Shown one piece after another: positions 42,001-44,312 of a DNA stretch of 64,000 nt. Positions within the stretch are counted from its first letter, which is position 1; each line of letters starts with the position of its first letter. Under the pieces are notes generated by a model that was not told where the DNA came from, searched no databases, and worked only from the letters and a program-made list of their open reading frames with translations. The stretch is from Mugil cephalus (taxonomy: Eukaryota; Chordata; Actinopteri; Mugiliformes; Mugilidae). The stretch is taken from NCBI RefSeq assembly GCF_022458985.1, contig NC_061771.1, positions 33,358,617 to 33,422,616 on the forward strand, in the 5' to 3' direction. The translations under genes and the position numbers were made by a program.

Positions 42001-44312
42001 GATATACTATACTGTATAATACAAGAGTTGTCCCTTGTACCAGTCTTGACCTTCCTACACCCACAGATGTTCCTCTTTAAACTCTCCTGTCCTTTAGAAG
42101 TGAGGACGTGGATGAAACGTTTTCAGGGGACTCTCCAGTCCACTGAGTCGACTGAGACCCTGGACAGGCTCAGTGAATACTTGTCTCCTGTCTGTTGTCA
42201 GGTTTCGTACGATCATCAACACCCTGATCAGGATTGGACCAGCCATTCTCACCTTTGGCCAGCTCATCATTGTGAGTTTCTGCTACTGTTAGCATCCAGG
42301 ATGGTTCAGCGTGTCTGTAGCGTGGTGGTCCACATCCAGACCAGAGGCCACACAGCAAACCTGTTAAAGGTTAATGCTAGCATGCTAACATGCTATATAA
42401 TGTTTACCATCTCAGTGGAGGCTGTTAGCATGCTAACATTTATTAGCACAAAGCAGCAGCTACTGGGAACGTTTTTGGTTTTAGTTAGACCGGAGTTAGT
42501 TAGCCTCCTTCTGGAGGAGGTTTTAGTTAGACTGGAGTTAGTTAGCCTCCTCCTGGAGGAGGTTTTAGTTAGACTGGAGTTAGTTAGCCTCCTCCTGCTA
42601 GAGGTATTAGTTAGACCGGAGTTAGTTAGCCTCCTCTTGGAAGAGGTATTAGTTAGACTGGAGTTAGTTAGCCTCCTCCTGGTGGCATCATTCTTCTCCT
42701 CTTCAGGTGGTGTACTATATCTTTGCCATGGTGGGGATGGAGCTCTTCAAGAACAAAATAAAGTTTTTCGAGGAGGGTTCCAGTGACCCCTCCAAGGCCT
42801 ACTGTGGGAACCCTCAGCTGAAAGGAACCGATTTCGCTCAACTCAACTACTGCAAGAACAACTTCAACAACGTGGTGTCATCCTTCATCCTCCTGGTGGA
42901 GCTGACGGTGGTCAACCAGTGGCACGATATCCTTTAGCTCAGACTCACCATGTCTTTGATTAGTCTGGTTCTGGTCTGGTTCCTTAACGTCCCCCCACTG
43001 CTCACTGCTGGCTTTGTCCGCGTCACCCACGTCTCAGCCAGGATCTTTTTTGTCCTGTTCCACATCACAGTCGTCATCATCATCATCAAGTAAGATTCAT
43101 TGTACCACCACATCTTCATTTGTGTCATCATCGGTCCCCTGGTCAAGGCCGTGGCCCTGGTCCTGGTCCTGGTCCTGGTCCTGGTCCTGGTCCTGGTGAC
43201 GCATCCCTTCCTGTGTCTTTCAGTATTTTTGTGGCCTTCATCCTGGAGGCGTTCTTTGTGGAGTACTCTGTGGAAAAAACTGACCTGCAGACGTCACTGG
43301 AGAAGAAGATCGAGGAGCTGGAGCTGGTAGTTAACAGGTAGTACTGGGTATTTATTGTTAAACTATTGTTAAATTATTGTTTAATTATTGTTAAGTTATT
43401 GATATTTAATAATTATTTAATTATTATTCTGTTTTCTTTGATCAGTTTCTCTGTTCCACATGCAGTTGTTGTATTTATCTTAAATGACCTGTGGGATCAG
43501 AGGAAGCCAGTTGGTGCAGAATTTACAGGGTTCAATAAGAAGCTTCTCCAATGCCTCCAGATTTATTTCATCCAGTGTTTTTACTTCAGATCTTGTATTG
43601 ATGATTGTCTGGTCTCATGCTCCCTGAACCACTGTCCTTCCAGTCTTTAGTAAAGTTCTTAAACCAGTTTCAGTAGTTTCTAGATGTTTCCTCTGCTTGA
43701 TGCAGCCGATGATTTGACCCTTCTCCACCACCACGGGATGTGTCTTTACACATGGTTGGTGAAGAATTGAGAAGCTCCTCATTGCATCAGTTGGTCTTAA
43801 ATAACTTGTTGAACTAATGATGCACCAGGAGGCTCTGGACTATTTAACCTCAGTTACATCCAGGTGGAGGAGACTCTGTATTTGAGCAGCTGGTGTGTTT
43901 TGTGGGGTGAATGTGAGAGTGAGTGTGGATGCTGCTCTGCTCATGTCCATGTCCATGTCCATGTTTGTCCGTCTCTACCAGAGAGAAGCTGGAGGACAAC
44001 CTGGTGAACGCCATGGAAACCATAGACAATGACCTGGGAGCAGGACAGTCTGGACCTGCACCAAACCTCCCGTCTGTGATGTTTAAAATCGCTTCGAAAC
44101 GTAAGATGACTGAGACTCTCTGGGCTGAATGAGTTAATATCAGGCTGAAGTCTAACCGTGGTGCTGCTGTGTGCTCAGGGTATCGGACCGTGGACGCGTT
44201 GTTGCAGCGGATGTTCGAGGCCGATCTGGACCCCGAGGATTTCGCTGAGAATGACGATCCTGAAGCTCAGAGCGGCGGCAACTTTGCCAACCCCTCGTTT
44301 AGCTCTGCATAG
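30041..44312 (+). CDS. tpcn3: two-pore channel 3 (tpcn3), 19 coding exons
   Basis: Voltage-gated cation channel with two six-helix domains. Exons: 30041-30139, 31528-31610, 31780-31894, 32233-32361, 32982-33098, 33975-34093, 35566-35667, 36506-36632, 37058-37265, 38041-38185, 38371-38556, 41314-41378, 41565-41652, 42202-42271, 42707-42926, 42999-43089, 43224-43337, 43982-44100, 44179-44312. They join in frame into 776 residues. Domain I filter region is [11 protein letters not shown] (from 247); the domain II filter is ELTVVNQW (616-623), against VNNW in TPC1/TPC2. The domain II S4 has arginines every third position (R515, R518, R521). Similarity to TPC1 is evident ([22 protein letters not shown]), but the N-terminus and loops differ, so I call TPC3, the paralogue lost in some mammals including humans. 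TPC1 is the alternative. The intron after exon 15 is AT-AC. Confidence 0.85.
30158..30290. repeat. dinucleotide microsatellite (CA)n in tpcn3 intron 1
   Basis: About 65 CA units starting about 20 nt after the donor of tpcn3 exon 1, with single interruptions. Confidence 0.95.
32390..32500. repeat. 45-bp tandem repeat in tpcn3 intron 4
   Basis: Two full copies and part of a third of a unit containing GTGGGCAGGGCTTATGTG followed by CAGCATGGGTGTATG. Confidence 0.8.
33125..33460. repeat. pyrimidine-only minisatellite, about 27-30 bp unit, in tpcn3 intron 5
   Basis: Units of CTTCCTCATCTTCTTCATC and CTCTCCTTCC repeat for 330 bp with almost no purines other than the A of ATC. It starts about 25 nt after the exon 5 donor. 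The strand is capable of triplex formation. Open frames ([17 protein letters not shown]) come from the repeat. Confidence 0.93.
34138..34844. mobile_element. non-autonomous hAT-like DNA transposon (copy 1), tpcn3 intron 6
   Basis: A 707-bp element bounded by short inverted ends: TAGAGCTGAC on the left and, read inward from the right, TAGGGCTGTC (8 of 10 match). It is flanked by 8-bp direct repeats GTCTGAAG and GTCTGAAA (7 of 8). An 8-bp duplication with TA-G ends is the hAT signature. No transposase is readable; the open frame at 34425-34748 is not recognised. A second, rearranged copy lies at 63279-63870. Confidence 0.75.
36690..36910 (+). mobile_element. LINE relic (L2-like reverse transcriptase end), tpcn3 intron 8
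   Basis: With frameshifts, the plus strand reads HITPIL-like, then [14 protein letters not shown] and LYTSGR. This matches the pattern HITP-L-LHWLPV---I-FKILLL-FKAL-G--P-YL at the end of many fish L2-type polyproteins. Heavily decayed. Confidence 0.5.
37303..37500. repeat. about 45-bp tandem repeat, five copies, tpcn3 intron 9
   Basis: Near-identical units containing TTTATATACGGTCTATGG then GGAGACGTGTTTAGTCCA. Differences are few, so the expansion is recent. It begins about 38 nt after the exon 9 donor. Confidence 0.95.
38585..39165. repeat. minisatellite, GGTCCTGGGGATCCTGGG type, tpcn3 intron 11
   Basis: About 580 bp of 9-bp words (GGTCCTGGG, GGTACTAGG, GATCCTGGG) with a strong G bias on the plus strand. 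It starts about 30 nt after the exon 11 donor. Collagen-like GXY reading frames here are artefacts. Confidence 0.93.
39420..39592. repeat. tandem repeat, AACCAAGAGAACCAAAGG type, tpcn3 intron 11
   Basis: Degenerate 9-bp words ACCAAGAGA and ACCACGGCA. Same intron as the preceding array. Confidence 0.85.
39595..40110 (-). repeat. (GATTA)n-type array grown from a retroposon tail
   Basis: About 450 bp of GATTA/GATCA pentamers ends in GATAAGATTACCCTTTATTGT. Read on the minus strand this is a typical LINE/SINE 3' end, ACAATAAAGGG followed by (TAATC)n. I infer that a minus-strand retroposon inserted in tpcn3 intron 11 and its tail expanded. Confidence 0.65.
40620..40660. mobile_element. DNA-transposon end-like sequence
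   Basis: CCTAATAAAGTGGCCACTG matches a terminal motif often seen in fish DNA transposons (I know it as CCTAATAAAGTGGCC-G). The rest of the element was not delimited. Confidence 0.35.
40810..41150. repeat. minisatellite, telomere-like CCTAACCCTAAAACTAA unit, tpcn3 intron 11
   Basis: Six to seven copies of a 36-bp unit combining CTAAACCTAACCCTAAAACTAA with CACCAGCCC. It contains true telomeric words (CCTAACCCTAA) in a larger unit, and degrades to the right. Confidence 0.9.
42475..42690. repeat. about 54-bp tandem repeat with palindrome, tpcn3 intron 14
   Basis: Four copies of a unit with TTAGTTAGACTGGAGTTAG and a short inverted repeat CCTCCTCCTGGAGGAGG. It ends about 20 nt before the exon 15 acceptor. 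It keeps an open frame ([14 protein letters not shown]) that runs into exon 15; this is not coding. Confidence 0.9.
42927..42998 (+). other. U12-type AT-AC intron (tpcn3 intron 15)
   Basis: The exon ends CAG TGG CAC G, then the intron opens ATATCCTTT, the exact minor-spliceosome 5' site. TTCCTTAAC, the exact branch-site consensus, lies at 42980-42988, and the intron closes CCCCCCAC at 42998, 11 nt after the branch adenosine. No GT-AG pair restores the frame. With this 72-nt intron removed, the protein reads [13 protein letters not shown] and the spacing to the last helix equals that of TPC1. The introns on either side are GT-AG. Confidence 0.9.
43150..43198. repeat. hexamer repeat (CCTGGT)n in tpcn3 intron 16
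   Basis: Eight copies in a 134-nt intron, related to the (CCAGGY)n array in slc29a2 intron 1. Confidence 0.9.
43495..43895 (-). mobile_element. Tc1-like non-autonomous element (copy C), tpcn3 intron 17
   Basis: Minus-strand counterpart of the copy at 48345-48790: it shares the TCTAGATGTTTCCTCTGCTTGATGC, CATTGCATCAGTTGGTC and GAGGAGACTC blocks. It fuses the DNA-binding start and the catalytic end of a Tc1 transposase, with the middle missing. It fills most of intron 17. Confidence 0.7.

What the first reader, a model, noticed from the sequence alone, without database searches (positions are those of the whole stretch)
42927..42998. A 72-nt AT-AC minor-spliceosome intron in tpcn3, next to the domain II selectivity filter
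Seen directly: exact U12 5' site ATATCCTTT, exact branch consensus TTCCTTAAC 11 nt from the 3' end, terminal AC, and no GT-AG alternative that keeps frame. Removing it gives NQWHVLTAG with the same spacing as TPC1. Known: AT-AC U12 introns recur in voltage-gated sodium and calcium channel genes, relatives of two-pore channels. Inference: this may be an inherited position shared with those channels. At 72 nt it is very short. Automated GT-AG gene finders would truncate or misjoin the protein just after the pore filter.
Basis: partly seen in the sequence, partly recalled or inferred. Interest (0 to 1): 0.72.

Follow-up and report, generated by a model that had tools for sequence, protein, structure and literature searches.

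The report
Minor-spliceosome intron in fish tpcn3
A fish gene for an ion channel (two-pore channel 3) is interrupted, right beside the channel's second ion filter, by a rare type of intron that the minor spliceosome should remove; the intron looks genuine but belongs to a known class, and its position is not shared with the related channel genes that were checked.

Summary
Window 42927-42998 is a 72-nt AT-AC intron with an exact U12-type 5' site (ATATCCTTT) and branch site (TTCCTTAAC) in the second pore of an intact tpcn3 (18 mapped exons, one terminal stop; 1203 bits to zebrafish TPC3). Its removal gives a gap-free match to zebrafish TPC3; the best GT-AG alternatives damage the filter region, and retention adds an in-frame TAG after NQWHDIL. 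It is the only AT-AC intron of the 17 mapped. A 78-nt AT-AC intron in ipo5 of the same genome is a positive control.

Shared inheritance with Nav/Cav genes is not supported. In the same genome tpcn1 and tpcn2 lack an intron at this nucleotide. Domain II of 12 of 12 HVA Cav loci has a U12-like GTATCC donor, but in S6, 93-96 nt further on; 0 of 5 T-type and 0 of 4 Nav loci have an intron at the filter. The length is near the published teleost short-intron peak (about 76 bp), so it is not unusual.

Most likely mechanism: U11/U12-dependent, slow removal; failure would end TPC3 inside the pore. RNA evidence and conservation in other species could not be tested. New member of a known kind.

The parts
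42927..42998 (+). 72-nt U12-type AT-AC intron of tpcn3 (intron 14 of the 17 mapped), phase 1
   Evidence: gap-free join to zebrafish TPC3 (6v1q_A)
42927..42935 (+). U12-type 5' splice site ATATCCTTT
   Evidence: sequence; ATATCCTT unique in window
42980..42988 (+). U12-type branch site TTCCTTAAC; candidate branch adenosines 42986 and 42987, 12 and 11 nt before the intron's last base
   Evidence: published optimum distance 11-13 nt (PMC3584512 passages)
42997..42998 (+). 3' terminal AC
42936..42938 (+). in-frame TAG met if the intron is retained (after NQWHDIL)
42707..42926 (+). tpcn3 exon upstream: domain II S5 (part), pore helix, filter VVNQWH
   Evidence: segment names recalled
42999..43089 (+). 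tpcn3 exon downstream: VLTAGF... into domain II S6
   Evidence: segment names recalled
31528..44312 (+). mapped part of tpcn3: 18 exons, 17 introns (16 GT-AG, 1 AT-AC); N-terminal exon(s) not mapped

Best explanation
The stretch is a genuine U12-dependent (minor spliceosome) AT-AC intron of tpcn3, which encodes two-pore channel 3. The U11/U12 di-snRNP would bind ATATCCTTT and TTCCTTAAC together, U6atac/U4atac/U5 would take over, and CAC-G would be joined to TG-CTC to give NQWHVLTAG at the second filter. Removal by this pathway is generally slow. If it fails, the frame meets TAG at the fourth codon after NQWH, so the product would lack the rest of the domain II pore and S6, or the RNA would be held back or degraded. 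Output of TPC3 would then depend on minor-spliceosome activity. Shown here: splice signals, frame, protein continuity, intact gene, positions in paralogues. Inferred: splicing in RNA, dependence on U12/U6atac, any regulatory role, the age of the intron.
For: Exact 5' and branch consensus at optimal branch-to-end distance (consensus from the PMC6259924 legend; distance from PMC3584512 passages). Gap-free fit of the joined exons to zebrafish TPC3 over 103 residues; 1203 bits over the mapped protein. Best of the joins scored. Eighteen exons read open to one terminal stop, and 16 of 17 introns are GT-AG, so the gene model is sound. Phase 1 is the commonest phase of minor introns in animals and plants (PMC10639083 passages). 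An AT-AC intron of the same make is present in ipo5 of this genome and U12-like donors in 12 of 12 HVA Cav loci. In zebrafish, U12 introns retained on zrsr2 loss are shorter than those not retained (PMC9501576 passages).
Against: No RNA data could be consulted. No other species' tpcn3 gene could be read, so conservation is untested. The strict motif pattern alone is at chance level genome-wide (5 against 4 in the control). A second U12-like donor, one mismatch, sits upstream in frame (42717). U6atac could not be sought: three requests did not complete. In rat cardiomyocytes, blocking translation did not raise Scn5a or Cacna1c RNAs with retained minor introns, so decay by NMD need not follow retention (PMC8767276 passages).
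Confidence: 0.93

Rival explanations
1. Same intron, but its position descends from an intron shared with voltage-gated sodium/calcium channel genes, before those families and two-pore channels split.
For: Nav and Cav genes carry minor introns in print; the HVA Cav domain II donor and the tpcn3 intron are both phase 1 and both in the domain II pore module.
Against: Positions differ by 93-96 nt in domain II (12 of 12 HVA loci); no intron at the filter in T-type (0 of 5) or Nav (0 of 4) loci, nor at this nucleotide in tpcn1 and tpcn2. No intron at the filter Trp in Cav domain IV (0 of 7). Cav domain III has an intron 1 nt away, but in phase 2, in another repeat and with GT donors (11 of 12 loci).
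Confidence: 0.03
2. A recent, lineage-restricted gain, or conversion of a U2-type intron, in fish tpcn3.
For: The position is absent from tpcn1 and tpcn2 of the same genome. Losses and type conversions of U12 introns in fish are on record (PMC2831892 passages).
Against: Loss and conversion of U12 introns are reported as very low in vertebrates (PMC3584512 passages), and AT-AC types take part in conversions less than GT-AG (PMC2831892 passages); gain was not looked up. The three paralogues differ at the introns seen in this stretch, so absence there says little.
Confidence: 0.1
3. An AT-AC intron removed by the major spliceosome.
For: AT-AC ends alone do not prove U12 dependence (PMC6717393 passages).
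Against: The 5' site and branch site match the U12 consensus exactly, at optimal spacing.
Confidence: 0.02
4. Not an intron: an insertion in a decaying copy, or an assembly error.
For: The stretch brings an in-frame stop.
Against: All 18 mapped exons are open and match zebrafish TPC3 over nearly its whole length; both ends carry exact minor splice signals.
Confidence: 0.02

Closest known systems
U12-type AT-AC introns (for example ipo5 in this genome)
   Same: ATATCCTTT 5' site, TTCCTTRAC branch site close to a terminal AC, phase 1, short
   Different: Host gene tpcn3, for which two full-text searches of the held library found no report of a minor intron
HVA Cav minor-type intron, domain II S6
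   Same: U12-like donor, phase 1, domain II pore module of a related channel
   Different: GTATCC donor (AG end found in 6 of 12 loci) rather than AT-AC; 93-96 nt further downstream
Shared Cav/Nav domain I S1 AT-AC intron (PMC6259924, section 7)
   Same: AT-AC U12 class in a pore-channel gene
   Different: Different domain and segment; tpcn3's intron nearest to that place (31611-31779) is GT-AG and lies before S1 (S1 placement recalled)
tpcn1 and tpcn2 introns of the same genome
   Same: Introns lie near the domain II filter in both
   Different: GT-starting; other nucleotides and phases

Membership tests
U12-type (minor) spliceosomal intron, AT-AC subtype | Highly conserved 5' site ATATCCTTT | tested here: met
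U12-type (minor) spliceosomal intron, AT-AC subtype | Branch site TTCCTTRAC 11-13 nt from the 3' end | tested here: met
   optimum from PMC3584512 passages
U12-type (minor) spliceosomal intron, AT-AC subtype | Matched AT-AC ends (AT-AG and GT-AC are disfavoured) | tested here: met
   rule
U12-type (minor) spliceosomal intron, AT-AC subtype | No distinct polypyrimidine tract | tested here: inconclusive
   only a short TCCCCCC run lies between branch site and end; not scored
U12-type (minor) spliceosomal intron, AT-AC subtype | Removal joins conserved coding sequence in frame | tested here: met
U12-type (minor) spliceosomal intron, AT-AC subtype | Spliced in RNA and dependent on U12/U6atac | not testable with these tools
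   no RNA data held
Two-pore channel 3 | Near full-length similarity to zebrafish TPC3, well above TPC1 and TPC2 | tested here: met
   1203 bits to TPC3 against 202 (TPC1) and 184 (TPC2)
Intron position shared with Nav/Cav | Same nucleotide and phase in domain II | tested here: not met
   0 of 17 Cav and 0 of 4 Nav domain II loci
Intron position shared with Nav/Cav | Same nucleotide and phase in Cav domains III and IV | tested here: not met
   domain III 1 nt off, phase 2 (11 of 12 loci with donor found); domain IV none at the filter (0 of 7)
Intron position shared with Nav/Cav | Same nucleotide and phase in Cav domain I, and in Nav domains I, III and IV | tested here: inconclusive
   Cav domain I: only acceptor sides seen, placing an intron about 18 nt after the filter Trp in 4 of 5 loci; Nav domains I, III, IV not examined
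Intron position shared with tpcn1 and tpcn2 | Same nucleotide and phase | tested here: not met

The most novel reading that the evidence does not exclude
The AT-AC intron is an old, TPC3-specific relic kept at the exact edge of the second filter; together with the HVA Cav S6 intron it shows that minor introns settled independently in the domain II pore module of two channel families. Because failure to remove it ends the protein inside the pore, it could act as a switch that ties TPC3 output to minor-spliceosome activity.
Probability: 0.25. Interest if true: 0.45.

Novelty: new member of a known kind. Interest (0 to 1): 0.3.

Why it matters
If confirmed in RNA, a two-pore channel gene joins Nav and Cav genes as a carrier of a minor intron. 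Fish tpcn3 would be expected among the genes disturbed when the minor spliceosome fails, and gene models that assume GT-AG could break the channel at its filter (inference). The comparison also speaks against using this intron as evidence of shared intron ancestry of two-pore and four-domain channels, since the position is not shared in the genes checked.

Tried and rejected
Motifs alone as proof: rejected, because each motif and the strict short pattern are at chance frequency; for 3 of the 5 pattern hits (L007, L009, L010) no confirming coding sequence was seen on both sides by eye. A looser scan of the window, up to one mismatch in each motif, gives 4 candidate introns on the + strand and 2 on the - strand; only two have one mismatch or fewer in all, 42927-42998 and 42717-42998.

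GT-AG or GC-AG alternatives: rejected by the junction scan (best 15 of the splice-like joins and best 8 GT-AG printed).

Shared position with tpcn1, tpcn2, Cav or Nav: rejected for domain II and for Cav domains III and IV. For Cav domain I only the acceptor side was seen (4 of 5 loci; L071 unclear). Nav domains I, III and IV were not examined. The names HVA, T-type, Nav, Cav1 and Cav2 for loci rest on recalled filter motifs. Of the 33 hits, 22 were looked at for the filter: 12 HVA, 5 T-type, 4 Nav, and L047, which showed no filter and was dropped; the other 11 are flanking exons. Of the 78 hits, 24 loci were inspected (12 domain III, 7 domain IV, 5 domain I); 54 were not. The domain III donor search looked only for GT at Trp+5 nt and found none for L069. 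For the HVA S6 intron an acceptor was found in 6 of 6 Cav1-type loci, some without a good branch site, and in 0 of 6 Cav2-type loci within the DNA held; that these introns are U12-type is inferred from the donor and the literature. Two of the 4 Nav fragments hold a GTATCC elsewhere, not at the filter (L045, L046).

Literature: Wu and Krainer 1999 and Rahman 2014 are not held. Minor-intron databases and supplementary tables could not be searched. Rfam gave no match in the window at gathering threshold.

Full report
What is there. The window is a 64-kb piece of contig 2 of a 635-Mb, 24-contig genome; that it is a fish is inferred from its size, contig number and protein similarity. It holds tpcn3 on the + strand. 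Eighteen exons from 31528 to 44312 give an open frame of 743 residues with one terminal stop. A hand-joined version of this protein (742 residues) matches zebrafish two-pore channel 3 (PDB 6v1q) over nearly its whole length at 1203 bits, against 202 for TPC1 and 184 for TPC2. The N-terminal exon or exons upstream of 31528 were not mapped.

The intron. Of the 17 mapped introns 16 are GT-AG; one, 42927-42998, is AT-AC. It begins ATATCCTTT, has TTCCTTAAC at 42980-42988, and ends CCCCCCAC. The first two match the published U12 consensus (PMC6259924, legend seen). The two candidate branch adenosines lie 12 and 11 nt before the last base; the reported optimum is 11-13 nt (PMC3584512, passages). The intron is phase 1, the commonest phase of minor introns in animals and plants (PMC10639083, passages).

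Is it more than chance? Each motif alone is not: one match each in the window, where shuffles give means of 2.06 and 1.43. A strict short AT-AC pattern gives 5 hits genome-wide and 4 in the reversed control. What counts is the coincidence with the protein. One search joined possible 5' ends 42850-42989 to possible 3' ends up to 43084; of the joins scored against zebrafish TPC3, 42927/42998 is best (425), gap-free. The next with splice-like ends (60 nt, AT-AC) scores 408; the best GT-AG (45 nt) 379, and it replaces filter residues. Neighbouring 72-nt joins without splice-like ends score up to 422, so the protein places the junction to within a few bases and the splice signals fix it. Retention meets TAG after NQWHDIL. 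A second U12-like donor with one mismatch lies at 42717 and would give a 282-nt in-frame removal to the same 3' end; it would delete the pore helix and filter and is thought unlikely to be the main form. As a positive control, one other hit, a 78-nt AT-AC intron (L011), joins to a peptide that matches importin-5 over 84 of 84 residues without a gap.

Length. 72 nt lies just below the teleost short-intron peak of about 76 bp, under which the frequency drops rapidly (PMC9438311, passages); zebrafish has two peaks of comparable size and fugu a large peak of short introns, in both intron classes (PMC7367187, passages). Intron 17 of this gene is 78 nt. The intron is short but not unusual for a fish.

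Is the position inherited with Nav and Cav? This was tested in the same genome. tpcn1 (contig 8) has GT-AG introns after SSF (phase 1) and after NNWYITM (phase 0); tpcn2 (contig 3) has GT-starting introns after NNFDDFG (phase 0) and inside the E codon of TTE-W (phase 2); neither has one a codon and a base after the NNW tryptophan (borders read by eye). A Cav domain II query found 33 places. In 17 of 17 Cav loci with the filter, an AG acceptor precedes it (before I-L-T, phase 0). In 12 of 12 HVA loci a GTATCC donor follows in S6, 118 or 121 nt after the start of that exon; the tpcn3-equivalent place would be 25 nt after it, so the two differ by 93-96 nt, though both are phase 1. For the 6 Cav1-type loci the AG end was found; for the 6 Cav2-type loci it was not. 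T-type (0 of 5) and Nav (0 of 4) loci have no intron at the filter. In Cav domain III, 11 of 12 loci have a GT donor 5 nt after the filter Trp codon, phase 2, one nucleotide from the tpcn3-equivalent place, but in the repeat that corresponds to TPC domain I (recalled). Cav domain IV has none there (0 of 7). The domain I filter of tpcn3 itself has a GT-AG intron at another nucleotide, phase 2. Published work places the U12 intron shared by Cav and Nav in domain I S1 (PMC6259924, section 7); Cacna1c is said to have minor introns 2 and 13 (PMC8767276, passages), which may correspond to S1 and the S6 site seen here (inference). Shared inheritance is therefore not supported.

How it works. By the established pathway, U11/U12 recognises both sites together and U6atac takes part in removal; such introns are removed slowly and are retained more than their neighbours (PMC8767276 and PMC3584512, passages). 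In zebrafish, U12 introns retained on zrsr2 loss are shorter (median 451 bp) than those not retained (1398 bp) (PMC9501576, passages). It follows, as inference, that this intron is a weak point for TPC3 output when the minor spliceosome is limiting, because retention ends the protein in the second pore. Whether such RNA would be degraded is open: in rat cardiomyocytes, blocking translation did not raise Scn5a or Cacna1c RNAs with retained minor introns (PMC8767276).

Novelty. Full-text searches of the held library found no paper with both 'TPCN' and 'U12-type' and one with 'TPCN' and 'minor intron', where the two terms are unrelated. A wider search (224 papers with 2 of 4 terms, 15 listed) shows PMC6259924 with both 'two-pore channel' and 'U12-type', the former only in its reference list. 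Databases of minor introns (IAOD, MIDB) could not be searched and may list it. The class is well known; the gene is a new member as far as these searches go.

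Noticed in passing
34200-34712 and 63345-63844: Two copies of a dispersed repeat, 89% identical over about 520 bases, one inside the 1472-nt tpcn3 intron before the domain I filter exon. No Pfam match in a translated piece.
   Followed up: partly
L015-L020, L027-L031, L036: All 12 HVA calcium-channel loci examined carry a GTATCC minor-type donor in domain II S6, while the 5 T-type loci do not.
   Followed up: partly
L048-L053, L060, L061, L072, L073, L076: Cav domain III has an intron 5 nt after the filter Trp, one nucleotide from the tpcn3 domain II position, but with GT donors and phase 2. 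Introns lie near pore filters in several repeats at different nucleotides.
   Followed up: partly
42717: A one-mismatch U12-like donor (ATATCTTT) lies in frame upstream in the same exon and could pair with the same branch site and AC, deleting 94 codons.
   Followed up: no
38585-39161, 39595-40052, 62108-63197 and others: Many tandem arrays (39 rows at score 150 or more, some overlapping), several inside tpcn3 introns.
   Followed up: no
24630-25865 (+): A 412-residue stop-to-stop frame, perhaps a single-exon membrane protein gene (PGAP4-like, name recalled); no Pfam match.
   Followed up: partly
53800-55707 (+): Exons of a protein kinase resembling tau-tubulin kinase (name recalled); the Pfam kinase hit is below the curated cut-off for the short piece given.
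   Followed up: partly
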